Source: Kangiella taiwanensis
GTDB taxonomy: Bacteria > Pseudomonadota > Gammaproteobacteria > Enterobacterales > Kangiellaceae
NCBI RefSeq assembly: GCF_020005165.1
Contig: NZ_JAHCLT010000002.1
Location: 248,001 to 312,000, forward strand
DNA length: 64,000 bases
Direction of reading: 5' to 3'
Shown: piece by piece, positions 16,758 through 28,523 of the stretch
Layout: each line of letters starts with the position of its first letter
Position numbering within the stretch: position 1 is the first letter of the stretch
Made by a program: the position numbers and the translations under genes
Notes under the pieces: model-generated
The model's input: the letters and a program-made list of their open reading frames with translations, nothing else
Databases searched by the model: none
What the model was told of the DNA's origin: nothing

Positions 16758-17345
16758 TTAATTGGCGATGTTGTAAATAATGTAGGCTAAAACACCCAAA
16801 ATAAGCACGCCCCAACCAATCCACTCTACATATTGACGCAATTTATGCTCCATTTGTTCCCCACCCCACTTCACTAATCCGCCGATGAGAAAAAACTGAG
16901 CACTTCTCGCCACAATAGATGCAATTAAAAACGGGATGAACGCCATACCCAGAGCGCCCGCTGTTAACGTGAAAATTTTATAAGGAACAGGCGAAAAGCC
17001 CGCCACTAATACCACCCAAACGCCGTATTCCGCAAACCAGTCCAGCGCACGGTTATAGGTTTCTTGATAACCTAGTTCAACAATCCAAGGCAATACCCAG
17101 GATTCAAAAGCAAAGGCTCCGATTAAGTAAGCTGCGACGCCACCCAGCACCGAAGTTACCGTCGCCACGAAAGCCAGCCATAGCGCACGGCTTGGCTTTG
17201 CTAACGCCATTGGCGCCAGCATTACAGCTGTGGGGATAGGGAAAAAGATGGACTCAATAAAACTAACAAAACCTAGAATATATACCGCATATTGGTGACG
17301 AGCCCAACGCAAGCAAGCATCGTACATTTTCGTGAAGATTTTCAT
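16758..17345 (-). CDS. DedA/YqaA-family membrane protein
   Basis: 195-residue inner-membrane protein of the VTT/SNARE-associated superfamily. Four or five hydrophobic segments are present, with the family pattern FIESIFFPIPTAVMLAPMAL near 29-48, GGVAAYLIGAFAFESW and GFSPVPYKIFTLTAGALGM. DedA relatives are linked to lipid flipping and envelope stress; the substrate of YqaA-type proteins is not settled. It overlaps pcm by 4 nt (ATGA), a pairing found in several gammaproteobacteria. Confidence 0.87.
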   Translation of the reverse strand: MKIFTKMYDACLRWARHQYAVYILGFVSFIESIFFPIPTAVMLAPMALAKPSRALWLAFVATVTSVLGGVAAYLIGAFAFESWVLPWIVELGYQETYNRALDWFAEYGVWVVLVAGFSPVPYKIFTLTAGALGMAFIPFLIASIVARSAQFFLIGGLVKWGGEQMEHKLRQYVEWIGWGVLILGVLAYIIYNIAN

Positions 17346-18010
17346 CGAGCAACACCGCTAACTAAAGGCACAAACTTTACTTTCTCAATAAAGGTTTCCT
17401 CTATCTTAGTTCCTTTACGCTGAACCAGAACTAAATCCTGAGACGCTTCTGTCGTACCCACAGGAATCATCATGCGACCACCATCGGCCAGCTGACTCAC
17501 TAACTTCTCAGGAATACTCGGCGGGGCTGCGGTAACGATAATGCCATCAAACGGCGCATATTGATGCCAGCCATTGAATCCGTCCGCGAATAAATACTGA
17601 ATATTATGCTGCCCAATCCCAGTTAAAGTTTTGCGCGCCTGCATGTGTAACGCTCGAATGCGCTCTACAGTGAATACCGTCTTAGCAACTTTAGACAGAA
17701 TTGACGTTTGGTAGCCACAACCGGTGCCGATTTCGAGCACTTTATTCATGCTACCCGTTTCCATCAACATTTCGGTCATGCGAGCCACGATATAGGGTTG
17801 CGAAATGGTCTGCCCCATTCCGATTGGCAGCGCTGTGTCTTCATAAGCTCGATGAGACAAGCCTTCATCAATAAACAGGTGTCTAGGCGTTAACTCTATG
17901 ATTTTTAAGAGCTCTTCATTCTTAATGCCTTCGGCACGCAAGCGTTCAACAAGGCGCGTGCGCGTGCGCGCAGAGGTCATGCCAATTCCCGAAATGTGTG
18001 TTGCATTCAT
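17342..18010 (-). CDS. pcm: Protein-L-isoaspartate O-methyltransferase
   Basis: Repairs isoaspartyl residues in aged proteins using S-adenosylmethionine. It has 222 residues, with RHLFIDEGLSHRAYEDTALPIGMGQTISQPYIVARMTEML, the SAM motif LEIGTGCGYQTSILS, and DGIIVTAAPPSIPEKLVSQLADGGRMMIPVG. All family blocks are present. It is 16 bp after surE, the classical surE-pcm pair, and overlaps the yqaA-like gene. Confidence 0.95.
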   Translation of the reverse strand: MNATHISGIGMTSARTRTRLVERLRAEGIKNEELLKIIELTPRHLFIDEGLSHRAYEDTALPIGMGQTISQPYIVARMTEMLMETGSMNKVLEIGTGCGYQTSILSKVAKTVFTVERIRALHMQARKTLTGIGQHNIQYLFADGFNGWHQYAPFDGIIVTAAPPSIPEKLVSQLADGGRMMIPVGTTEASQDLVLVQRKGTKIEETFIEKVKFVPLVSGVAR

Positions 18011-18026
18011 ATATTTATTATCTGTA

Positions 18027-18779
18027 TTAGTTATCGATAGTTTTTAAAAAGTCCTCAAGCTCGTCAAAACTATTGTATGCCGTTAAATCGACATTGATCG
18101 GTGTTACAGAAACATAACCGTTTAAAACCGCATGAAAATCAGTGCCTTCCCCCACATCCTGGCCTTCTGGCAGCGGTCCCAACCAATAAATAGGACGACC
18201 TTTTGGATCTTTATCGGGAATTATAGTATCAGCACGGTGGCGATTTCCCAAGCGCGTTAATTTAATTCCTTTCAATTCATCGTATGGCACATCTGGAACA
18301 TTAATATTCAACACACGATTCTGTTCCATCGGATGTGTTTGCAAGCCTTTGATAATATCCACAGCAACCTTAGCAGCCGTAACATAGTGCTCGCAATTAT
18401 GGCCAACCAAAGAAACAGCCACCGCTGGGTAGCCTAAAGCCCGCCCTTCCATCGCTGCAGCGACGGTGCCAGAGTATAAAGTGTCATCACCTAAGTTAGC
18501 ACCGGTGTTAATCCCTGCCACCACCATATCGGGTGGTTCAGGCATCAGATGGTGTGTGCCAAGGTGAACACAGTCTGTCGGCGTTCCGGTAACCGAGTAG
18601 AAGCCTCGCTCGGTTTCATTAACACGAATCGGTTTGTCTAAGGTCAATGAATTGCTGGCGCCACTACGGTTACGGTCAGGAGCCACCGTTGTGACTTCAG
18701 CTATTTTCGATAAGTGGTCAAACAGTGTGCTAATTCCTGGTGCAAAATGTCCATCATCATTGCTTAAAAGTATTTTCAT
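18027..18779 (-). CDS. surE: 5'/3'-nucleotidase SurE
   Basis: Metal-dependent nucleoside monophosphatase of 250 residues. The N-terminus [16 protein letters not shown] carries the D8-D9 metal ligands, and [46 protein letters not shown] and LNINVPD are all canonical. It follows truD by 24 bp and precedes pcm. Confidence 0.95.
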
Positions 18780-18803
18780 ATCTTATTTAATCGTTAAGAG
18801 GAT

Positions 18804-19871
18804 TTACTCACCGGCCATGGTATAAGCCGGCTTATTTTCATTCAACGTTACCAGCTCACGCAAAAAGCTGGTTGCGAAGGCACCTTTTGGCAAATCAAAA
18901 GACAGCGTAAGGTCAGTATCATTATGCCAGTCTGCTATGACATTTTGAGGAAAACACAGCATAGTTCGACGCTCTTCATTGAATCGCTTATTGCTGAGTT
19001 TCTCAATAAGCACTTGGTAATCAGCCAAGCTGTCCATTTCAAAGGTTAACGCCTCATTCTTGGTCTGCGAACGTGAGCCAGCCAGTGGTGCGGTCAAAAG
19101 GACATCGTTTTCTTTAAAACGCTGTTGCTCCGCTGTTAGATCATCTACCACAAAGCCTTTCTCAGAACCGCTAAGCATAACGAAGTCACCTTCGAGTAAT
19201 GTTTGCGCTAGGCCTTTGTTGATTCGCTCAGAAACCACATGGTTATACAAAAAAGACCTCACCGCTGAAAACAGCAAACCTTGCAGATTACGGTTTTTGA
19301 GTCTCTTATTCTTGAGCAAGAGATCGATACCACGGCTTAAGTTAGCGCCGTCGTTGCCAAAGCGTTGCTCACCAAAATAGTTAGGGAAACCGCACTGTGA
19401 CACTAGCCCAAGTCGCTGCTGAAAGTCTTCTTTGGCACAGCTAAGGTCACGTAGTTTAATCTGGAAGTGATTCGACTTAACAGCGCCGATCCGTAATTTC
19501 TTATCATGGCGAGTGACGCTGAGTACCTTCACTTCGTCATCGTTAAACTCGTTCCAATCAATCTCTTGCAATAAGGGCAACTGCACACTGTACCATTGTC
19601 TGGCCACAGCAAAGCGATCTTTTTTACCAGCATACCCGACATCGGTGGGCTTGACCTCAGCAAAGCGCATCAGTTTTTTGACGACAATGTCAGTATTGAT
19701 GTTCTGCTTTTCGATATAAAGATAATGATGAGCACCTTCGCCAGAAAGCTCAAAGCGTAAGGTTTCTTCGACGACAAAATCTTGAGGTTTTGACTTGAAG
19801 GTTGCACTACCCAGAGGATCGCCATGAAGTCGCTCCCACTCATAGCATTGAGTTTGCGATAAGTCGCTCAT
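18804..19871 (-). CDS. truD: tRNA pseudouridine(13) synthase TruD
   Basis: Makes pseudouridine at position 13 of tRNA-Glu. The 355-residue protein has [25 protein letters not shown] near 31-55, the catalytic block [19 protein letters not shown] with D85, and [18 protein letters not shown] before the TRUD insertion domain. It overlaps ispF by 4 nt (ATGA), so expression is coupled to that essential gene. Confidence 0.95.
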
Positions 19872-20347
19872 GAAGCGCTCTGTAGCAGGCAGACCGCATG
19901 AACCGCGATACCTTCTTTGCGGCCGACAAAACCTAGCTTTTCTGTGGTTGTGGCTTTGACATTCACTTGATGGAAATCTGCATCACAGGCAGCGCATAAA
20001 ACACCTCGCATCCCTTCGATCTTATCCGCCATTTTTGGTGCTTGTGCAACGATGGTCACGTCAAGATTTCCCAACTGATAACCTTCTTTAGAGACTAAAG
20101 CCATAACGGATTTCAGTAACTCTTTGCTGTCAGCACCTGCAAATTCGTCGCTGGTATCAGGAAAGTGATGCCCGATATCGCCTTTGGCGATTGCGCCAAG
20201 CAAAGCATCGCACACCGCATGAAGCACAACATCGCCATCCGAGTGGGCAAGCAGGCCTTGCTCACCCTCAAACAACACACCGCCTAAAATTAACGGTTTG
20301 TCACCACCAAATTTATGGACATCATAGCCATGACCAATTCTGAACAT
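19868..20347 (-). CDS. ispF: 2-C-methyl-D-erythritol 2,4-cyclodiphosphate synthase
   Basis: MEP-pathway enzyme making MEcPP, essential for isoprenoids. It has 159 residues with zinc ligands D9 and H11 in GHGYDVH and H43 in [14 protein letters not shown], plus [11 protein letters not shown] and [17 protein letters not shown]. Its usual partner ispD lies about 7.5 kb upstream, separated by the whole his operon. No terminator is visible in the 24 bp after hisD; a candidate promoter overlaps the hisD 3' end. Confidence 0.96.
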
Positions 20348-20371
20348 ATATCGATCCGTAAAACATCATTT

Positions 20372-21592
20372 TTAAGATCTTACCGCCATTGACTGTTTAT
20401 GCCAAACCAATTGCTCTGCCTCCGCTATTTTTTCTCCCATGGCGGACAGTTTCTTTCGGCCAACTTCATGCACGGCTTGTACCGACTGCACTTTAAGAAA
20501 GCTCAAAACACTCAACCCACTGGAGCGATTTGCCGTACCCATGGTGGGTAATGTGTGGTTAGGTCCAGAGCAGTAATCGCCATAGGCCACAGCACTGTTT
20601 TCGCCAACAAACAAAGATCCGAAATTGGTCAATAGCGATTGATCAACTCGACGATCAGCCAACAAAAGGTGCTCAGGCGCATATTGATTACTAAAAGCGA
20701 TCATGTGCTCAATGTTGTCAGCCTTAAGCAAAATGATCTGCTCCTTATCCAGCAATTGCTTCAACTCTGAATCGTTAGCCAGAGAAGCCTCAACACTATT
20801 CAGTAGTTCAGAACTATCCGAAACCAACAAACTTTGTGCTTGTGGGTCATGCTCGGCCTGTGCCGCCATATCGGCAATAACCCACTCCTGATTGACCGTT
20901 TCATCCGCTAAAATCAGTAATTCACTAGGTCCAGCCGCCACGTCAATCTGAATGGTTTGACTTAATAGCTGTTTGGCTGCGTTGACATACTGATTACCCG
21001 GCCCCACGACCATTTGTACCGGCTTCATTGAGTCGTAACCATAGGCCATGGCTCCTATCGCTTGCGCACCACCCAGCTTCAAGAAGCCCGTCGCTCCCGC
21101 GAGACTTGCTGCCGCTAAAATAGCGGGGTGATCCGAAGGAGAACACGCAATACGTTCCTGACAGCCTGCTAACCTAGCAGGGATGAGGGTCATAAGCGCC
21201 GTTGAAATCAACGGAAAACGCCCGCCAGGAATATAGGCTCCAATTCGTTCAATCGCTTGGTAACGAAAACCAAACTCACCGCAGTCATCAACGTAAGTAC
21301 TATCAATCAGTTTATCGCGTTGAAATTGAGCAAACCCCTCAATACGGCTGGCCGCATCCTTTATTGCTTGCAACAGTTCAGGCTCAAGTTCATAGTCCTC
21401 AGGTGACTTTAACTCAATCCAGGTTGGCGCAAAGCCATCAAACTGCTGGCTCATCTCATCTACAGCAGCGTCACCCTCTTGCTCTATTCGACCCAGTAAC
21501 TCGCGCACCGTAACGTCAACATTGCTTTGACTGTTGCTTTGTTCGCGTTGCCATTTTTTGCAATCGATAATAGAGGTCACACTATCCTGCAT
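20372..21592 (-). CDS. hisD: Histidinol dehydrogenase
   Basis: Catalyses the last two oxidations, L-histidinol to L-histidine, with NAD+ and zinc. It has 406 residues from the ATG at 21592, chosen because GGGAG lies 8 nt upstream; an in-frame GTG at 21610 would add six. Diagnostic segments are ERIGAYIPGGRFPLISTALM, GGAQAIGAMAYG, VGPGNQYVNAAKQ, DVAAGPSELLILAD, AQAEHDPQAQ with zinc-binding His, YAPEHL and SGPNHTLPT. It overlaps the hisA-hisIE fusion by 11 nt and is last in the operon, whereas hisD is usually second. Confidence 0.95.
   Translation of the reverse strand: MQDSVTSIIDCKKWQREQSNSQSNVDVTVRELLGRIEQEGDAAVDEMSQQFDGFAPTWIELKSPEDYELEPELLQAIKDAASRIEGFAQFQRDKLIDSTYVDDCGEFGFRYQAIERIGAYIPGGRFPLISTALMTLIPARLAGCQERIACSPSDHPAILAAASLAGATGFLKLGGAQAIGAMAYGYDSMKPVQMVVGPGNQYVNAAKQLLSQTIQIDVAAGPSELLILADETVNQEWVIADMAAQAEHDPQAQSLLVSDSSELLNSVEASLANDSELKQLLDKEQIILLKADNIEHMIAFSNQYAPEHLLLADRRVDQSLLTNFGSLFVGENSAVAYGDYCSGPNHTLPTMGTANRSSGLSVLSFLKVQSVQAVHEVGRKKLSAMGEKIAEAEQLVWHKQSMAVRS
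20377..20405 (-). promoter_or_regulatory. Candidate sigma70 promoter for ispF at the 3' end of hisD
   Basis: Read on the minus strand, TTGGCA (20405-20400) and TAAGAT (20382-20377) are separated by exactly 17 bp. Transcription would begin near 20370, about 23 nt before the ispF ATG at 20347. It would free ispF-truD-surE-pcm-yqaA-nlpD from histidine attenuation. This is a pattern match only. Confidence 0.45.
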
Positions 21593-22829
21593 TTCGAGCT
21601 CCCAGTTCACTAATAATTTCCGCTGGCGCTACACCCTTTGCTTTCGCATTCACTAAGGCAAAGAATATTAAGTCCGCCGCTTCCCAGCGTACTTCATCAT
21701 TATCTTGCGCTTCGATCAATTCTTGACACTCTTCATTAAGCTTTTCGATTTGCAAAGCTTCGCTACTGAACAGCTTTTGTGAAAATGACTGAGGTTCGCC
21801 TGCGTCTAGTTCTTGCAGTCGCTTATCAAATACTTGGTTTAAGCGATTCAAATCAAATTGCGGCGACTGTGATGCGAAACAGCTATAACGCTCAAAGTGA
21901 CAAGCGTTGCCTTGCTGTTTCACTTTAAACAGTAAAGTATCTCCGTCACAATCATAATCGATATTAACAAGAGCTTGAGTGTTACCGCTGGTTAACCCTT
22001 TTTGCCACAACTCTTGGCGAGAGCGGCTATAATAGACACCAGCCTTTTTGTTGATGGCTTCTTGCAAAGACTCTTTTGTCGAGTAGGCCAGCATTAATAC
22101 TTGGTTCGTACCAACATCTTGCACCACCGTTGGCATCAGTTCAGCTTTATCAAAGTCCAAACAGCTAAACAATGCATCATCCAGCTTTAGCTTTCCGGTA
22201 TACACCGACATGCCTATCTGACTGTTAGCTCCGAGGCTATTAATGGTTTTGACGTCGTCTAAAGTTGTAATTCCGCCAGCAACCGTCACCGGTATTTTTG
22301 AGGTTTTAACAACACTCCTAACGCGCTCTTCATCAATACCTTGTAGCAATCCTTCTTTCTGTACCTGAGTGTATAAAAACTCAGAGCAGTTGCCTTGTAT
22401 CTCTTCGATGAGCTCCAATACCTTAACCGTGTCAGTAGACTGCCAGCCATGAGTCACCCAGTCATCACCCTTCGCATCAATCGCAAAAATCAGTTGCGAG
22501 CTGGGTAATTTCTTAACAAACTCAGAGCGACATGAAGTGCCCAAAATCACTTTCTTCGCGCCTGCTGACAAATATTCACGAGCCGTGTCATAATCTCGAA
22601 TACCACCACCGACACGGCATGGGTATTTTTTAATTAACTGCTTAATTAAGTCTTTGTTGCTACCACGACCTAAAGCAGCATCAAGATCGATAATCGCTAC
22701 TTCGCCATACAAAGAGAAGCGCTCCAGTAAACCAAAAACATCTTCTTCTTCAATAATTTTTCTATCAGGGTTGCCCTGCTCTAACTGAACGGCTTTACCG
22801 TCGAGTAAATCAATACTTGGAATTAACAT
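21582..22829 (-). CDS. hisA-hisIE: HisA-HisI-HisE trifunctional fusion
   Basis: One 415-residue chain carrying three steps. Residues 1 to about 228 are HisA (ProFAR isomerase), with catalytic-type D7 in PSIDLLDG and D118 in FAIDAKG, phosphate-binding VGGGIRD and VAGGI. About 231-322 is HisI (PR-AMP cyclohydrolase), with YYSRSRQELWQKGLTSGN, the metal motif DCDGD (293-297) and C310/C317. About 325-415 is HisE (PR-ATP pyrophosphohydrolase), with EKLNEECQELIEA and EAADLIFFALV. HisIE fusions are common; joining them to HisA is not the usual arrangement. AGGAG precedes the start by 6 nt. Confidence 0.9.
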   Translation of the reverse strand: MLIPSIDLLDGKAVQLEQGNPDRKIIEEEDVFGLLERFSLYGEVAIIDLDAALGRGSNKDLIKQLIKKYPCRVGGGIRDYDTAREYLSAGAKKVILGTSCRSEFVKKLPSSQLIFAIDAKGDDWVTHGWQSTDTVKVLELIEEIQGNCSEFLYTQVQKEGLLQGIDEERVRSVVKTSKIPVTVAGGITTLDDVKTINSLGANSQIGMSVYTGKLKLDDALFSCLDFDKAELMPTVVQDVGTNQVLMLAYSTKESLQEAINKKAGVYYSRSRQELWQKGLTSGNTQALVNIDYDCDGDTLLFKVKQQGNACHFERYSCFASQSPQFDLNRLNQVFDKRLQELDAGEPQSFSQKLFSSEALQIEKLNEECQELIEAQDNDEVRWEAADLIFFALVNAKAKGVAPAEIISELGARNAG

Positions 22830-22847
22830 TAAAAACTCCTAGTTACG

Positions 22848-23630
22848 CTATCGCGTTAAAATCTGTTGTTGTTTAAGGGCTTTCTTCACATCTTGCACGC
22901 TATACTCTCCTCGGTGGAACATGCCGGCCGCTAAAGCTGCATCACTCCCCGCCATAAAAGTATCGACAAAATGCTGCTCGTTGGAGGCACCACCGGACGC
23001 AATGACTTGAATGTTGCGTTCTTTCGCCACACGCGACATCAACTCATTATCAAAGCCGATACCAGTTCCATCACGGTGCATCGCGGTCAGAAGAATTTCA
23101 CCTGCGCCACGTTTCTCAACTTCTCTAAACCAATCAAAAGCATTAACCTCGGTTCGAACATGACCACCGCTGACGTAAACCGCGTAATCATCGGTTTCAT
23201 CCTTATTCACATCGATAGCCACAACCACACACTGTGAACCGAAACCTTCAGCGATCTCATTAATTAGAGTAGGCGTTTTGACCGCTGCCGAGTTCAATGC
23301 CACCTTGTCAGCACCGGCATTCAAAAACTGCTCAACATCAGCATAACTATTAAGGCCGCCGCCCACCGTGAATGGAATCGATAAGTTTTGCGCTACTCGA
23401 CGAACCGTATCCAGCGCATTAGCACGATTTTCCAAAGTGGCCTTAATATCGAGGAATACAATTTCATCAGCTCCCTGCTCTTGATATCTCAACGCCAACT
23501 CCACTGGATCGCCCATGTCGGTCAATCCTTTAAAGTTAACGCCTTTGACCACGCGACCATTAGCCACATCAAGACAAACGATCACTCTTGGGATTAGACC
23601 ATTATTAACTTGCTCTAGCTGCTCAGACAT
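22848..23630 (-). CDS. hisF: Imidazole glycerol phosphate synthase, cyclase subunit
   Basis: With HisH converts PRFAR and glutamine-derived ammonia to ImGP and AICAR. It is a 260-residue TIM barrel with an N-terminal extension of about 10 residues. Catalytic D21 is in [15 protein letters not shown] and the second Asp in [56 protein letters not shown] and IASGGA follow. The AMHRDGT motif has His where most homologues read (S/T)(M/I)DRDGT. Its start overlaps the hisH end by 16 nt, as expected for subunits made together. Confidence 0.94.
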
Positions 23631-24229
23631 TGCTTAATGACCTCCTCGCCGGTATCACCTGACTTTTCAGGGTGAAACTGAAATGCCCAAATGTTGCCTT
23701 GATTAATAGCAGCCACAAACTGCTCGCCATAAGTCACCGTGGCCGCCGTTACCTTAGACTCTTTAATGCCGTAACTATTGACGAAATAAACAATCTTCTC
23801 ATTCAGGTCGCTCATACCCGAGCTAAGCTTTGACCAGCCTACCATCGGTTGCTTCGGGCTATTTAAGCGCTCAACCTTGCCTTGGAAAATACCTAACCCA
23901 GGAATACCGGGATCTTCTTCAGACTGGTTAAAGAGCACCTGAAGTCCAACACAAATCCCCAGCAGTGGCTTATCCTGCTTAACCCAATCGATAATTTCTG
24001 CATCCAGACCTGTGGCACTCAATTGCTTCATGACCTGCCCAAAACGCCCTTGTCCCGGAATAACCAATGCATCGACCTGATTAACCTCAAGATCACTCGG
24101 TTGATTGATTTGTACAGTGGTATAGCCAATACGCTTTAAACAGGCGTACAAGCTAAACAAGTTCCCTGCTTTGGTATTTATAACGCCAACCACTTTAGGT
24201 TCGACAGAGCCATTTAACCCAGCACTCAT
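23615..24229 (-). CDS. hisH: Imidazole glycerol phosphate synthase, glutamine amidotransferase subunit
   Basis: Class I glutaminase supplying ammonia to HisF. It has 204 residues, with catalytic C93 in LLGICVGLQVLF and the H186/E188 pair in FQFHPEKSG. Two normally conserved motifs differ: the N-terminal (I/V)DYGAGN is VINTKAGN, and the oxyanion-strand PGVGAF is PGQGRF (59-63). The catalytic triad is intact, so it should be active. It overlaps hisB by 4 nt. Confidence 0.92.
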   Translation of the reverse strand: MSAGLNGSVEPKVVGVINTKAGNLFSLYACLKRIGYTTVQINQPSDLEVNQVDALVIPGQGRFGQVMKQLSATGLDAEIIDWVKQDKPLLGICVGLQVLFNQSEEDPGIPGLGIFQGKVERLNSPKQPMVGWSKLSSGMSDLNEKIVYFVNSYGIKESKVTAATVTYGEQFVAAINQGNIWAFQFHPEKSGDTGEEVIKQCLSS

Positions 24230-24804
24230 AACATCCCCTTGGTACTGTTATCACGCTCGCTCACCTGTAACGCTTCTCTTAAAGCAAATGCCAAGCCTTT
24301 AAAGCTGGCTTCTACTAAGTGGTGATTATTGTCAAAGTACTCCGTTTTAATGTGCAGAGTGATGGCGCTATTTATCGCAAAGGTATAAAAGAAGTGATTC
24401 CACATTTCAGTACCGATACCGCCTAAACTTTCCCTTGTAAAAGGCAAATCAGTGATCGAGTAAGCACGTCCACAGACATCCACAGCCACGATTAGCAAGC
24501 TTGCGTCCATGGGTAATAAGCGCTGACCATAGCGAACAATCTTTCCTTGCTGACGCCATGCTTGATTGAAAGCCTGCCCTAAACAAATAGCCACATCTTC
24601 AATCAAGTGGTGATCATCAACCTCCAAATCACCTGTCGACTTTAGCGTTAAATCCCAGCCGGCGTGCGTTGCCAATTGATTGAGCATGTGGTCAAAGAAC
24701 GGGAGCCCTGTATCTATCGAGACATTCTGTTGTCCATTAATATTGAGCCCCAGCTCAATAGTGGTCTCTTTCGTTTCACGATTTAAGGTGATGGTATTAC
24801 TCAT
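24226..24804 (-). CDS. hisB: Imidazoleglycerol-phosphate dehydratase, monofunctional
   Basis: Dehydrates IGP to imidazole acetol phosphate. At 192 residues it is the dehydratase only. Manganese-binding motifs are LPFFDHMLNQLATHAGWD, DDHHLIEDV and NNHHLVEASFKG, and it ends with the standard STKG plus two residues. It lacks the N-terminal HAD phosphatase that enterobacterial HisB carries; a HAD domain is instead fused to HisC next door. It overlaps both neighbours by 4 nt. Confidence 0.95.
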   Translation of the reverse strand: MSNTITLNRETKETTIELGLNINGQQNVSIDTGLPFFDHMLNQLATHAGWDLTLKSTGDLEVDDHHLIEDVAICLGQAFNQAWRQQGKIVRYGQRLLPMDASLLIVAVDVCGRAYSITDLPFTRESLGGIGTEMWNHFFYTFAINSAITLHIKTEYFDNNHHLVEASFKGLAFALREALQVSERDNSTKGML

Positions 24805-26516
24805 AACAACTCCTCTAATTCATTAACCGACTCCAGCGCAAGATCAGCCCCAAAGTCGTACAAACTCTCACTACCGATACCAATAGCCAATGCTCCGGCA
24901 CCATTCGCAGCAGCCATATCGTCAGGCGTATCGCCCATCATCCAGCAGTTCTCTTTACCGAAATAGCGCAATGCTTTTTGAACACCTTCTGGATTAGGTT
25001 TGGACTCAGTCACATCATCGTCACTAATAATCAGGCAGTTCTTAGCACCAACCAACTCAGCACCTTCAATCGCCTCGTCTTTCGGGCGTCCAGTAACAAT
25101 GGCTGTTTTCAGTGTTTTAGTACCTGTAATAAATAAACGCGTCGCAAAGTCTCTACTCATAAAAGCCTTTTCTATGGCTTTAAAACCTTCCTGTGAAGCG
25201 CTACCTTGGTAAAAGCCCTGAAAGACATCAACCACTTTGTCAAAGTCAACGTTTTCAGAACCAGCTAACTGTTCATTGGTTAAGGCCTGAGCTAACACCC
25301 AGTCGTTGTTATAGCCACCCTGACCTCGCAAGCGCTCAATGTCATGTTGAGTCACAGACTCACCACTTAACTCTTTCACCGTTGCCTTAATCGCCTCGTC
25401 ATAACTTTGGCTGGTATCAATCAATACACCGTCCATATCGAAGCACAATAACTCTGGCTTAAGCGCCAAACACAGAGCATTGAGCAATGGTCTAATGTAA
25501 AAAGGAATGGTGATTCGAATCGCATTGATATCTACGCGCTTTGCACTTAAACCTGATAGCGTGGTTTTGATGATAATATTGCGTTTCTGACATGCCGCTT
25601 TAATTAAGCGCAGCTTAGCGTCGCTTCCTTGTACAAAAACAAAGTTGGCACTACTGTCTACGACCTTTAAGCCAGATTCAGTGAGTAACGATGTAATTTG
25701 CTCACGATTTTGGGCAATAGTTTGCGCATAATTGCTGACTTCCAATCGAGCACTTTCGCTAAACGCTTTTTTCGCAACCTCAATTGTCGGAGAAGGCAAG
25801 TTAAAAGGCATGGCTAATGATGTGAACTGCGAAATCATAGCTTGCTGTCCCAGTAAATAACCACAGCGTATTCCTGCCAAACCGAAGGCCTTTGATAAGG
25901 TTCGTAAAATCACTAGGTTGTCAAAGCGCTGAATCAGCTCAAGCGTAACGTCTGTCATGTTGCAGGCAAACTCGATATAAGCCTCATCAAGAAACACAAC
26001 CGCGTCTTTAGACTTAGCTAACTCACAGGCTTTAACCAGCTCATCATAAGGAATCAACTCACCAGTGGGATTATTAGGGCTGGTTAAAATTAATATTGAT
26101 TTGTCGCTTAAACAATCGAGCGCCGAAGTTAAATCAATGCGCATATCGTCCAAAGGCTCAATTAATTCAATATCGCTTTTCCAAGTGTCTTTTCCAACAA
26201 GGTATTGACTAAAAGCAGGCAGTGGCAAAATCAATTTACGTTGCTGCAAGCAGGCTAACTTAAATAACAACTCAATCGATTCATCGCCACCATTAGTCAA
26301 GAGTAACTGCTTTTCAGACACACCGTAGAATTGACTGGCTTGGGTTTGCAACCCCTGTTTATCAGGGTACTTCCACAAACACTCTGTAGACAGTGTTTCT
26401 TCGCTTAGCCAAAGAGGTCGACAATCTGAACGCTCGTTGAAGTCTAGCTTGAGAGGCCGCCTTACGCTTCCACCCGCAGCCTGGTTGTTCAGGGAGTTTT
26501 GGTATAAAGGCTTCAT
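24801..26516 (-). CDS. hisC: HisC fused to a C-terminal HAD-superfamily phosphatase-like domain
   Basis: 571 residues. The first ~350 form histidinol-phosphate aminotransferase (fold type I PLP enzyme), with TNGGDESIELLF, SPNNPTGE (N149), FLDEAYIEF (D177, Y180), PLP lysine K209 in TLSKAFGLAGIRCGY and R334 in IRITIPF. Residues ~356-571 are a HAD domain, with nucleophile D360 and D362 in FDMDGVLIDT, motif II TGRP at 475-478, K506 in ESKPNP and GDTPDD at 528-533. HAD residues are all present, so it should be a phosphatase. The operon has no other histidinol-phosphatase, making this domain the obvious candidate. It resembles HAD-IA proteins linked to his genes (TIGR01548 type, from memory). Confidence 0.9.
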   Translation of the reverse strand: MKPLYQNSLNNQAAGGSVRRPLKLDFNERSDCRPLWLSEETLSTECLWKYPDKQGLQTQASQFYGVSEKQLLLTNGGDESIELLFKLACLQQRKLILPLPAFSQYLVGKDTWKSDIELIEPLDDMRIDLTSALDCLSDKSILILTSPNNPTGELIPYDELVKACELAKSKDAVVFLDEAYIEFACNMTDVTLELIQRFDNLVILRTLSKAFGLAGIRCGYLLGQQAMISQFTSLAMPFNLPSPTIEVAKKAFSESARLEVSNYAQTIAQNREQITSLLTESGLKVVDSSANFVFVQGSDAKLRLIKAACQKRNIIIKTTLSGLSAKRVDINAIRITIPFYIRPLLNALCLALKPELLCFDMDGVLIDTSQSYDEAIKATVKELSGESVTQHDIERLRGQGGYNNDWVLAQALTNEQLAGSENVDFDKVVDVFQGFYQGSASQEGFKAIEKAFMSRDFATRLFITGTKTLKTAIVTGRPKDEAIEGAELVGAKNCLIISDDDVTESKPNPEGVQKALRYFGKENCWMMGDTPDDMAAANGAGALAIGIGSESLYDFGADLALESVNELEELL

Positions 26517-27361
26517 AGCGCTTTCCGAATCGGTGTTTCAAGAATATCCGTAGCACCAGCGCTAATTAACTTTGGCAATAAGTCTTTAATTAACTTGCGC
26601 TCAATCGCTGCTTTAATTGCAAATCCATCGGCGTTATACAGCTCACTCACCGTCGGCGCTCTCATGGCAGGTAATAAGTTCACTACACTATCAATGGTCT
26701 CTTTACCACAGTTCATTTCAAGCAAAACACGCTTACGCCCATTCATCACGCCACGCATCAGCAACAATAAGTTATCAATCTGCTCTTTTTTCGCTGGGTC
26801 TTGTAACGTTTCTTTGTTGGCAATAAATTGAGTCGAACTTTCAATAACCGTATCGACAATCTTTAAACGGTTTGCTCGAATGGTAGAGCCTGTGCTGGTG
26901 TTGTCGATAATCATATCAGCATCTTCCGGCGGAAAAACTTCTGTGGCGCCGTATGCACGCAACAACTTAAATGGCACGCCCAACTTAGACAGGTAGTCGT
27001 TCGCGATTTTTTTGTATTCTGAAGCCACAATAATATTTCTTTGCTTCACTTCTTCCCAATTCCACTCCTCAGGAATACACGAGACCAGTTTCACAGGGTT
27101 AAAACCTAGGTCCTCGAGTACCTCGACATCGGCTTCCTGCTCAATAATCCAGTCCATACCGGCAAAGCCAATGTCATGCTGCCCTAACGCTACCATTTCT
27201 GGAATGTTCTGGCTTTTCAGTAACTTAACCTCAATATCACAACCGTACAGCGTTGGTCGATAATTACGGCTATCACCAACTAACGTTAAACCCACTTCTG
27301 ACAAAAGCTCTGCAACCTTATCGTAAAGCTTGCCTTTTGGAATTACCATTTTCAAAGTCAT
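26513..27361 (-). CDS. hisG: ATP phosphoribosyltransferase, long form
   Basis: First committed step, joining ATP and PRPP. It has 282 residues from the ATG at 27361, which has AGGAG 7 nt upstream; a longer open frame to 27382 lacks support. The catalytic part shows MVIPKGKLYDKVAELL, GFAGMDWIIEQ and the PRPP loop IDNTSTGSTIRANRL. The C-terminal domain (NGRKRVLLEMNCGKETIDSVVNLLPAMRAPTV) is the ACT-like regulatory domain of the long form, normally giving histidine feedback inhibition. No HisZ is needed. It is the first structural gene after the tandem attenuators. Confidence 0.95.
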   Translation of the reverse strand: MTLKMVIPKGKLYDKVAELLSEVGLTLVGDSRNYRPTLYGCDIEVKLLKSQNIPEMVALGQHDIGFAGMDWIIEQEADVEVLEDLGFNPVKLVSCIPEEWNWEEVKQRNIIVASEYKKIANDYLSKLGVPFKLLRAYGATEVFPPEDADMIIDNTSTGSTIRANRLKIVDTVIESSTQFIANKETLQDPAKKEQIDNLLLLMRGVMNGRKRVLLEMNCGKETIDSVVNLLPAMRAPTVSELYNADGFAIKAAIERKLIKDLLPKLISAGATDILETPIRKAL

Positions 27362-27410
27362 TGTGTATCTCCTGAATATCAATATATAAAAATGTAAAAG
27401 TCTAAAAACG

Positions 27411-27444
27411 AAAAAACCCGCTGTCCTTTCGGAGCAACGGGTTT
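27411..27444 (-). terminator. Proximal his attenuator terminator
   Basis: On the minus strand, AAACCCGTTG pairs with CAGCGGGTTT and, after a one-base bulge, TCC pairs with GGA across a GAAA tetraloop. The 3' arm runs into TTTTTT. It sits 49 nt before the hisG ATG. The 5' arm (plus 27432-27440) can instead pair over nine positions (one G-U) with plus 27490-27498 inside the leader, right after the His codons, which would be the antiterminator. Confidence 0.85.
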
Positions 27445-27462
27445 GGAATTCTTTGCTGAGAG

Positions 27463-27546
27463 TTATTTCGTCAAATACAACTCATCCCACCGTCGCTCGC
27501 GCAGTGTATGATGGTGATGATGATGTAATTGACTGATTAAATTCAT
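27463..27546 (-). CDS. hisL: Proximal his operon leader peptide, 27 aa with six consecutive His
   Basis: A 28-codon frame starts MNLISQL, then six His codons (CAT CAT CAT CAC CAT CAT), then a short Arg/Glu/Trp-containing tail and TAA. AGAG lies about 8 nt before the ATG. Its last codons run to within 19 nt of the terminator stem. This is the classical transcription-attenuation layout: ribosome stalling at His codons when charged tRNA-His is scarce leaves the downstream antiterminator free to form. Confidence 0.88.
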   Translation of the reverse strand: MNLISQLHHHHHHTLRERRWDELYLTK

Positions 27547-27609
27547 GTTTTTACTCTAACTCTACTCTTTCATTAATGCTTGCTTTGCCTTGAACACTTC
27601 TTTAAGGGC

Positions 27610-27641
27610 AAAAAAAAGCCCCGCTCAATGGCGGGGCTTTT
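27610..27641 (-). terminator. Distal his attenuator terminator
   Basis: Minus strand AAAAGCCCCGC pairs perfectly with GCGGGGCTTTT around a 6-nt loop and runs into a T-tract, so it is a strong intrinsic terminator. Minus-strand CCGCCA in its 5' arm and loop (plus 27629-27634) can alternatively pair with TGGCGG in the distal leader (plus 27683-27688), the candidate antiterminator. It lies between the two leader peptides. Confidence 0.85.
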
Positions 27642-27665
27642 GAATTCTTTAACTGAATGACATTA

Positions 27666-27740
27666 TTAAAGACAATAGCTCACCGCCAACACGTTTGCGT
27701 GATGGTGGTGGTGATGTAATTCGCTTAGTAATGTATTCAT
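27666..27740 (-). CDS. hisL: Distal his operon leader peptide, 24 aa with six consecutive His
   Basis: A 25-codon frame begins MNTLLSEL, followed by six His codons (CAT CAC CAC CAC CAT CAC), a short hydrophobic tail and TAA. It shares the pattern MN-x(3-5)-L-His6 with the proximal leader, with different codons and tail, so the pair is either an old duplication or convergent. The predicted transcript start is only about 2 nt before this ATG, so it has no room for a ribosome binding site and may be leaderless. Confidence 0.85.
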   Translation of the reverse strand: MNTLLSELHHHHHHANVLAVSYCL

Positions 27741-27748
27741 ATGAGTGC

Positions 27749-27777
27749 ATTAAAACCTGATAACTCAACCTTGTCAA
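27749..27777 (-). promoter_or_regulatory. sigma70-type promoter of the his operon
   Basis: Minus strand: consensus -35 TTGACA (27777-27772), 17-bp spacer, -10 TTTAAT (27754-27749). Transcription should begin near 27742, immediately upstream of the distal leader ATG (27740). It lies in the 78-bp gap after ispD, so the his operon need not depend on the pyrG-ispD transcript. Confidence 0.7.
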
Positions 27778-27780
27778 CAC

Positions 27781-27808
27781 GCCTTTATGACATTTTGGTT
27801 ATAAAGGC
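27781..27808. repeat. Inverted repeat between ispD stop and his promoter
   Basis: Perfect 8-bp arms GCCTTTAT and ATAAAGGC with a 12-nt spacer, placed just after the ispD stop and 3 bp upstream of the his -35. It could be a weak terminator for the ispD transcript (no T-tract on the minus strand) or an operator for a regulator. Sequence alone does not decide. Confidence 0.5.
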
Positions 27809-27818
27809 TCTATTGAAG

Positions 27819-28523
27819 TTAATCCAAGCCATGGTTTAGCCAAATTGATGCCAGCAATAAATCCTCTTGCTCTGTAACTTTCAGGTTTTTACGTGATCCT
27901 ATAACCAGCGAGGGGTGATAACCGGCAAATTCCATCGCAGATGCTTCGTCAGTCACAACAGCTTTAGCTGCTAAGGCTTTCTCGATGGCATTGCTTAAGC
28001 TAATAAGTGGAAAGAACTGTGGCGTTTGCGCTAACCAAATAGTGTCCCTATCAATGGTTTTGTCGATTACTTGCTGTTGATTCGCTTGTTTTACCGTGTC
28101 GATTGCACCAATCGCCAAAATAGCGCCGTCAGGAGATGACTCTTTGGCGTGAACCAGATCATCAATATGGCGTGAGCTTAAGCAAGGTCGAGCGGCATCA
28201 TGCACCATAACCCAGTCATGCTCAGTCCCTTCAATATCACGAATAAGCTGCAAGGCCGACAAGACAGAGTCAACTCGGTTCTGCCCCCCGTTAGTAGTCA
28301 AGACACGAGGGTTATCGGTAAAAGGGAGCTTTGCCCAATAATCGTCACTAGGATTAAGTGCAACAACGACTTTATGGATTTTTGAGTGCTCAAGGAAGTG
28401 ATTGATGCTGTACTCAAGAATGGTCTTGTCTTCAATCTTAAGGTACTGCTTGGGAATATCAGAATTCATCCGTGAGCCAATACCTGCGGCTGGAATGACA
28501 GCCCATATACGATTTGATGACAT
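27819..28523 (-). CDS. ispD: 2-C-methyl-D-erythritol 4-phosphate cytidylyltransferase
   Basis: MEP-pathway enzyme forming CDP-ME. It has 234 residues with the nucleotidyltransferase start VIPAAGIGSRMNSDIPKQYL, GGQNRVDSVLSAL, VHDAARPCLS and VTDEASAMEFAGYHPSLVIGS. It follows ftsB by 11 bp, the conserved ftsB-ispD order, but ispF is displaced to the far side of the his operon. Confidence 0.96.
   Translation of the reverse strand: MSSNRIWAVIPAAGIGSRMNSDIPKQYLKIEDKTILEYSINHFLEHSKIHKVVVALNPSDDYWAKLPFTDNPRVLTTNGGQNRVDSVLSALQLIRDIEGTEHDWVMVHDAARPCLSSRHIDDLVHAKESSPDGAILAIGAIDTVKQANQQQVIDKTIDRDTIWLAQTPQFFPLISLSNAIEKALAAKAVVTDEASAMEFAGYHPSLVIGSRKNLKVTEQEDLLLASIWLNHGLD

What the first reader, a model, noticed from the sequence alone, without database searches (positions are those of the whole stretch)
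27411..27777. Two complete His-codon attenuators in tandem ahead of one his operon
Seen directly: promoter, leader peptide 1 (six His codons), strong terminator, leader peptide 2 (six His codons), second terminator, then hisG. Both leaders share MN-x-L-His6, and each has a segment just after the His run that can pair with the 5' side of its own terminator (6 bp distal, 9 bp proximal). Classical his operons have one leader. Two in series should multiply repression and sharpen the response to charged tRNA-His, much as tandem riboswitches do. I do not recall this being described for peptide-coded attenuators.
Basis: partly seen in the sequence, partly recalled or inferred. Interest (0 to 1): 0.88.

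Follow-up and report, generated by a model that had tools for sequence, protein, structure and literature searches.

The report
Two histidine sensors in a row
In the marine bacterium Kangiella the histidine-making genes sit behind two successive "is histidine scarce?" checkpoints instead of the usual one, an arrangement kept across the genus and met again in distant bacteria, which should make the switch tighter and sharper.

Summary
On the minus strand one promoter (27777-27749) is followed by a His6 leader peptide, an intrinsic terminator, a second His6 leader, a second terminator and hisG. The genus is Kangiella. All 19 Kangiella hisG loci found carry both units; the units are conserved (mean pairwise identity 0.64 each), the spacer between them is not (0.26). 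All 38 units fold into a terminator and a competing antiterminator; each leader pairs best with its own terminator in 18 of 19 distal and 19 of 19 proximal units. No internal promoter beats shuffles, and in 6 of 19 genomes the gap is too short for one, so the units should act in series. The start codon of leader 1 is 6-8 nt after the -10 box, so its message is probably leaderless. The 11 other family and order loci read have one unit. Tandem His attenuators also occur in 8 of 12 Marinicella-order and 5 of 30 Bacteroidales loci read. My open-access searches found no same-signal tandem peptide attenuator; Salmonella mgtCBR has two with different signals. Serial action is inferred, not measured.

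The parts
27749..27777 (-). Promoter: -35 TTGACA (27777-27772), 17-nt spacer, -10 TTTAAT (27754-27749); predicted start site at or within about 2 nt of the leader-1 ATG
   Evidence: 17-nt spacer and a -10 to ATG distance of 6-8 nt in 19 of 19 Kangiella loci; consensus inference, no start-site mapping
27666..27740 (-). Leader peptide 1 (distal), MNTLLSELHHHHHHANVLAVSYCL, probably translated from a leaderless mRNA
27699..27716 (-). Six His codons of leader 1 (segment 1)
27629..27688 (-). Antiterminator 1 (segments 2 and 3: UGGCGG with CCGCCA plus inner helices)
   Evidence: (dG -20.8, 0 of 200 shuffles as stable); core pairs kept in 94.5% of cells over 19 genomes
27610..27641 (-). Terminator 1 (segments 3 and 4) and U run
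   Evidence: (-19.3 kcal/mol)
27463..27546 (-). Leader peptide 2 (proximal), MNLISQLHHHHHHTLRERRWDELYLTK
27508..27525 (-). Six His codons of leader 2 (segment 1)
27430..27501 (-). Antiterminator 2 (segments 2 and 3: GAGCGACGG with CCGUUGCUC plus inner helices)
   Evidence: (dG -27.3, 0 of 200 shuffles as stable); core pairs kept in 95.8% of cells over 19 genomes
27410..27444 (-). Terminator 2 (segments 3 and 4) and U run
   Evidence: (-19.1 kcal/mol)
26513..27361 (-). hisG, first gene of the his operon
   Evidence: PF01634 1.5e-39, PF08029 4.2e-21
20372..26516 (-). Rest of the his operon: hisC-HAD phosphatase fusion, hisB (IGPD), hisH, hisF, hisA-hisIE fusion, hisD
   Evidence: gene names from the Pfam domains and operon order

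Best explanation
Two complete ribosome-mediated transcription attenuators, both sensing charged tRNA-His, lie in series on one transcript of the his operon. RNA polymerase starts at the single promoter. If His-tRNA is plentiful, the ribosome runs through the His codons of leader 1, the 1:2 and 3:4 hairpins form, and transcription stops at T1. If the ribosome stalls on the His codons, segment 2 pairs with the 5' arm of T1 and polymerase goes on to leader 2, where a new ribosome repeats the same test before T2. hisG is reached only if both tests are passed, so the read-through probabilities multiply: repression is deeper and the response to starvation steeper, at little cost to full expression. 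Shown by sequence: all parts, their conservation and the alternative pairings (as predictions). Inferred: termination, stalling, the single transcript and the multiplication.
For: Both leaders and both terminators in 19 of 19 Kangiella hisG loci. Antiterminator folds in 38 of 38 units; in 31 of 38 at most 10 of 200 shuffles fold as well. The 1:2 hairpin has 8 or more pairs in 37 of 38. Segment 2 pairs better with its own terminator than with the other's in 18 of 19 distal and 19 of 19 proximal Kangiella units. Units conserved at 0.64 against 0.26 for the spacer and 0.27 upstream. Promoter seen only before unit 1; gap from T1 stem to start 2 of 25-69 nt, at most 29 in 6 of 19. The pair of units stays with hisG where the upstream gene differs: no ispD match within 1500 bases in 4 of 19 loci (L005, L006, L015, L023). 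In L157 the proximal unit is missing relative to its sister L156 and one complete unit is left ahead of hisG, so a unit can stand alone. A simple race model with assumed parameters gives read-through 0.12 to 0.93 for one unit and 0.015 to 0.86 for two as codon reading falls from 10 to 3 per second. Kangiella lives on extracellular protein and can grow on amino acids alone (PMC6000758, passages), which would fit a need for tight repression.
Against: No RNA or expression data. The core antiterminator helices hardly vary within the genus: no pair changes on both sides and the percentage paired equals that of shuffled columns, so only the slid controls (27-61% and 34-58% paired against 94.5 and 95.8%) and the fold energies speak for them. 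In 7 of 38 units more than 10 of 200 shuffles fold as well. Some units look weak: interrupted His runs in the distal leaders of L006, L007, L013, L017 and L023, three consecutive His codons in the proximal leader of L018, an interrupted run in that of L023, a weaker T1 in L013 (-12.1), two His codon pairs only in the 1:2 fold of L010 proximal. In L013 the distal segment 2 pairs slightly better with T2 than with T1; so it does in four of eight tandem Marinicella-order loci (L152, L154, L155, L156), by 0.8 to 3.0 kcal/mol, and in L156 the proximal segment 2 does no better with its own terminator. Leader 2 has only weak Shine-Dalgarno-like sequence and L005 starts with GTG.
Confidence: 0.85

Rival explanations
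1. Unit 1 serves mainly to make a short RNA or peptide that acts in trans (as reported for rnTrpL and peTrpL of Sinorhizobium), and unit 2 alone regulates hisG.
For: Unit 1 is predicted leaderless, as is trpL in S. meliloti (PMC7298713, passages); its terminated RNA would be abundant when His is plentiful.
Against: His codons are kept, the leader peptides agree mainly where the RNA pairs, and an antiterminator is present as in unit 2; a trans RNA needs no antiterminator. The two roles do not exclude each other.
Confidence: 0.07
2. The two leaders are alternative, each behind its own promoter, not serial.
For: Spacers of up to 69 nt in some genomes could hold a weak promoter; a 9-of-12 match exists in L003, L004 and L017.
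Against: In one search the best match between the units is reached by 19 to 100 of 100 shuffles in every one of 19 loci; six genomes have a gap of 25-29 nt only. The distal promoter scores 9-11 of 12 in 18 of 19 and 7 in L016. One search used a wrong second start in four loci (L003, L013, L014, L017), which only lengthens the stretch searched.
Confidence: 0.04
3. Unit 1 is a decaying or neutral duplicate, or an insulator against read-through from ispD.
For: Some distal His runs are interrupted; ispD lies directly upstream in the window and eight other Kangiella loci.
Against: Kept in 19 of 19 genomes at the same identity as unit 2, including loci with no ispD match upstream; an insulator needs no His codons or antiterminator.
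Confidence: 0.03
4. Chance His runs or an assembly duplication.
For: None found.
Against: The two units differ in sequence (LAV type against RRW type), recur in 19 genomes, and only one is seen in 11 related loci.
Confidence: 0.01

Closest known systems
Classical his operon attenuator of Escherichia coli and Salmonella (hisL; Rfam RF00514; mechanism recalled)
   Same: His-codon leader peptide, 1:2, 2:3 and 3:4 alternative hairpins, intrinsic terminator ahead of hisG
   Different: One unit there, two here; sequence below the Rfam cut-off; unit 1 probably leaderless
Tandem attenuators of Salmonella mgtCBR (mgtM and mgtP; Lee and Groisman 2012, PMC3641672; abstract and section 11 read)
   Same: Two short ORFs in one leader, each acting as an attenuator
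   Different: There two different signals (ATP, proline) acting independently and additively, with stem-loops that do not resemble intrinsic terminators; here one signal read twice, each with its own terminator
Tandem riboswitches and T-boxes (recalled; the metE tandem riboswitches are mentioned in PMC3641672, section 11)
   Same: Repeated sensing-plus-terminator units in one leader
   Different: Here the sensor is a translating ribosome, not RNA binding of a ligand or tRNA
Leaderless trpL attenuator of Sinorhizobium meliloti (PMC7298713, passages)
   Same: RNA begins at the leader-peptide ATG
   Different: Trp, single unit
Structured 5' element upstream of hisG in Flavobacteriaceae (PMC9723704, passages)
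   Same: Leader-peptide attenuation inferred ahead of amino-acid operons in Bacteroidetes
   Different: No tandem arrangement in the passages seen

Membership tests
Ribosome-mediated (leader peptide) transcription attenuator | Short ORF with a run of codons for the product of the operon | tested here: met
   His6 in both leaders, his operon downstream
Ribosome-mediated (leader peptide) transcription attenuator | Intrinsic terminator between leader ORF and the next gene or unit | tested here: met
   T1 and T2 predicted in 19 of 19 genomes
Ribosome-mediated (leader peptide) transcription attenuator | Mutually exclusive antiterminator linking the region after the regulatory codons to the terminator 5' arm | tested here: met
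   structure prediction only, no covariation of the core helix within the genus
Ribosome-mediated (leader peptide) transcription attenuator | Read-through rises when the cognate tRNA is uncharged | not testable with these tools
   needs RNA or reporter data
Rfam RF00514 His_leader | Score at or above the gathering cut-off (49 bits) | tested here: not met
   no match in the window; 30.0 bits for unit 1, none listed for unit 2
Tandem attenuator of the mgtCBR kind | Two units answering different signals | tested here: not met
   both units carry His codons; mgtCBR from PMC3641672
T-box leader | Match to a T-box model in Rfam | tested here: not met
   no family at gathering score in the window; no T-box among the 49 matches listed for 27300-27850

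The most novel reading that the evidence does not exclude
Same-signal tandem peptide attenuation is a recurrent regulatory architecture: a whole attenuator was doubled and kept ahead of hisG in Kangiella, in Marinicella relatives and at least once, probably twice, in Bacteroidales, giving a multiplicative, two-checkpoint response to histidine supply. It is the ribosome-coupled counterpart of tandem riboswitches, with a first unit on a leaderless message.
Probability: 0.6. Interest if true: 0.75.

Novelty: new variant of a known kind. Interest (0 to 1): 0.66.

Why it matters
Leader-peptide attenuation is a textbook mechanism taught as one leader per operon. A genus-wide, apparently convergent doubling gives natural material to test how the sensitivity of attenuation is tuned (Elf and Ehrenberg 2005, PMC1183508, passages, tie it to the number and fraction of regulatory codons), and whether nature multiplies checkpoints instead of lengthening one His run. 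Natural one-unit loci, such as L157 beside its two-unit sister L156, make the comparison direct.

Tried and rejected
Rfam at gathering and at E up to 10: the sub-threshold list is dominated by terminator-like matches and decides nothing. The tool's promoter scan does not list the promoter because of its own rule on the -10 box; not taken as evidence of absence. Formal covariation of the core antiterminator within Kangiella: none, because the helix is nearly invariant; the terminators show a little (2 pairs changed on both sides, one cell each, in A1; 1 pair with 7 such cells in A2). Tandem leaders at other amino-acid operons of the window's genome: ilvB, leuA and trpE show none in the 700 bases upstream; ilvB and trpE follow other genes closely, so this is a weak test.

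Rows and numbers set aside. One search's rule missed the proximal leader of L018 and the distal leader of L023, both plain; one search's rule missed the second, three-His leader of L152 and L154, read by eye there. One search took wrong start codons for L003, L008, L010-L014 and L017; the starts used are those. In one search the end of the His run of L016 proximal was set too late, so its fold is of a shortened stretch. In one search extra weak terminator-like hits were dropped by hand: L021, L022 and L027 (single-leader family loci), L149 and L159. In one search L023 and four others are long branches. (Bacteroidales tree) is unreliable: L162 was left out because its hisG frame is broken, and L163 entered in a wrong frame because its locus is cut short, labelled 'other' although one search showed it to be tandem; I use no count from that tree. 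Of 54 genomes with a HisG match I read upstream DNA for 30. Of 73 Bacteroidales genomes matched I read 30; L179, L181 and L190 showed no His leader by my rule (L163 showed none at first, for the cut locus). That pattern finds 13 of the 19 Kangiella loci, so it misses some. Paper listings were capped (30 of 156, 15 of 3,013, 20 of 30, 20 of 57, 12 of 19).

Full report
What is there. Reading the minus strand: after ispD (27819-28523) comes TTGACA, 17 bases, TTTAAT, eight bases, then the ATG of a 24-residue peptide with six consecutive His codons, a stop, a GC-rich hairpin with a T run, 67 bases from the stem to the ATG of a 27-residue peptide with six consecutive His codons, a stop, a second hairpin with T run, and hisG at 27361. 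The genes downstream are hisG, a hisC-HAD phosphatase fusion, hisB, hisH, hisF, a hisA-hisIE fusion and hisD. Each unit folds better than all of 200 shuffles.

Whose it is. Same-genus loci L005 and L008 lie on contigs of 350282 and 732984 bases, the lengths of contigs of Kangiella shandongensis and K. aquimarina DSM 16071 that carry the same leaders, so the genus is Kangiella. I did not identify the species.

Conservation. Of 20 genomes of the genus searched (own included) 19 gave a HisG match; the one without is 55% complete. All 19 carry a distal leader of one type (His run followed by ..LAV.. or variants) and a proximal leader of another (..TLRERRW.. or variants). In one search my rule missed the proximal leader of L018 (three His codons) and the distal leader of L023 (interrupted run); both are plain in the sequence. 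Both terminators are predicted in 19 of 19. Mean pairwise identity is 0.64 for each unit, 0.50 for the promoter stretch, 0.26 for the spacer between the units, 0.40 between T2 and hisG and 0.27 for 100 bases further upstream. Selection therefore appears to act on two blocks, not on one long leader.

Working parts. With the terminator's 3' arm left out, all 38 units fold into an antiterminator that pairs codons just after the His run with the 5' arm of the unit's own terminator, usually continued by an inner helix; in 31 of 38 at most 10 of 200 shuffles fold as well, in 7 (L010, L012, L013 and L016 distal; L014, L015 and L016 proximal) more do. In Kangiella the own-terminator pairing is stronger than the cross pairing in 18 of 19 distal and 19 of 19 proximal units; in four of eight tandem Marinicella-order loci the distal segment pairs better with T2. 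A 1:2 hairpin between His codons and segment 2 has eight or more pairs in 37 of 38. Between lineages the two strands change together, for example AACGGGG with CCCCGTT in several Marinicella-order distal units but AACGAGG with CCTCGTT in L158 (by eye). Within Kangiella the core helix hardly varies: 94.5 and 95.8% of cells are paired, no more than in shuffled columns, with no two-sided change; slid versions fall to 27-61%. The terminator helices give slight covariation support.

Series, not alternatives. The distal promoter has a 17-nt spacer in 19 of 19 loci (the pattern missed L017). In L016 it is weak (7 of 12). Between T1 and leader 2 no promoter-like match beats shuffles (19 to 100 of 100 as good), and the distance from the end of the T1 stem to the second start codon is 25-29 nt in 6 of 19 genomes, too short for a promoter outside T1. 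Transcription that reaches leader 2 should therefore have passed T1.

A leaderless first unit. The last base of the -10 box is 6-8 nt before the leader-1 ATG in 19 of 19; the 12 Marinicella-order loci look the same by eye. With the usual distance from -10 box to start site (general knowledge) the RNA begins at or next to the AUG. S. meliloti trpL is a precedent. This is a prediction.

How widespread. The 11 non-Kangiella loci read (ten of the same family, one of the same order) show a single His leader; eight of them show one terminator, and L021, L022 and L027 a second, weaker terminator-like hit that I set aside. A pattern scan of one genome per species for two His runs with a T run between them (truncated) brought three Marinicella and two Bacteroidales genomes with hisG behind the leaders. 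Protein searches then gave 12 HisG loci among 101 genomes of the Marinicella order: 8 with two units, 4 with one. Two of the eight have only three His codons in leader 2. L157 has one unit where its sister L156 has two; L157's stretch after its terminator resembles what follows T2 in L156 (by eye), as a deletion between the two terminators would leave. Among 30 Bacteroidales loci read, 5 have two units: L161, L162, L182 and L184 with both terminators computed, and L163 by eye. The tree of 42 gammaproteobacterial HisG proteins needs at least three gains or losses of the tandem state; one old gain with several losses is not excluded there, but the Bacteroidales cases have a HisG only 29% identical to Marinicella's and different leaders. 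Two origins are therefore likely and four possible.

How it most likely works. Each unit is a ribosome-mediated attenuator for charged tRNA-His. In series their read-through probabilities multiply and their logarithmic sensitivities add. A simple race of ribosome against polymerase (six codons, 40 nt at 43 nt per second; my assumed numbers) gives 0.12 and 0.015 read-through for one and two units at 10 codons per second, and 0.93 and 0.86 at 3 codons per second: a lower floor for little loss at the top. Kangiella degrades extracellular protein and can grow on amino acids alone (PMC6000758, passages), so histidine should often be plentiful and tight repression useful; that link is inference.

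What is known. Salmonella mgtCBR has two peptide-ORF attenuators in one leader, for ATP and proline; [quoted passage not shown]). Naville and Gautheret (PMC2965389, passages) report a second terminator in tandem in rimP leaders. A Mycobacterium abscessus paper (PMC4974804, passages) only refers to the magnesium-transporter case. Searches listed no paper on two leaders for one amino acid; they cover open-access full texts only and several listings were capped. Older comparative papers on attenuation that I recall (Vitreschak and colleagues 2004) I did not read. I therefore call it a new variant of a known kind, with that caveat.

Noticed in passing
window 17342-28523: The his operon lies between ispD and ispF; hisD ends 24 bases before ispF, so this isoprenoid gene and truD, surE and pcm behind it (the last two named from recall) may depend partly on his transcription. 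An ispD match lies within 1500 bases upstream of hisG in 15 of 19 Kangiella loci, directly before leader 1 in 9 of them; none in L005, L006, L015, L023.
   Followed up: partly
window 24801-26516 and 21582-22829: Two gene fusions in the operon: hisC with a HAD-type phosphatase, and hisA with hisI-hisE.
   Followed up: partly
hisG, window 26513-27361: HisG of this type is rare: with the Marinicella HisG as query only the window's own genome matched at 1e-60 among 369 genomes of the class, and 18 of 24 order-level genomes have only a HisG of 24-33% identity. The operon may have been acquired horizontally.
   Followed up: no
L005, L006, L008-L011, L014-L016, L018, L023, just after T1: These Kangiella loci have an ATG directly after the T1 U run (CTTTTTTTATG), also seen after the single terminator in several family loci; its short reading frame does not look conserved. 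Unexplained.
   Followed up: no
L162 (Bacteroidales): The hisG frame of this tandem-leader genome holds a stop codon: a broken gene or an assembly error.
   Followed up: no
L192 (window's genome C1:1048256-1049416): The leuA-like match covers only positions 1-386 of 494 and includes a stop.
   Followed up: no
window 62037, + strand: A third run of four His codons in a 20-codon frame; not examined.
   Followed up: no
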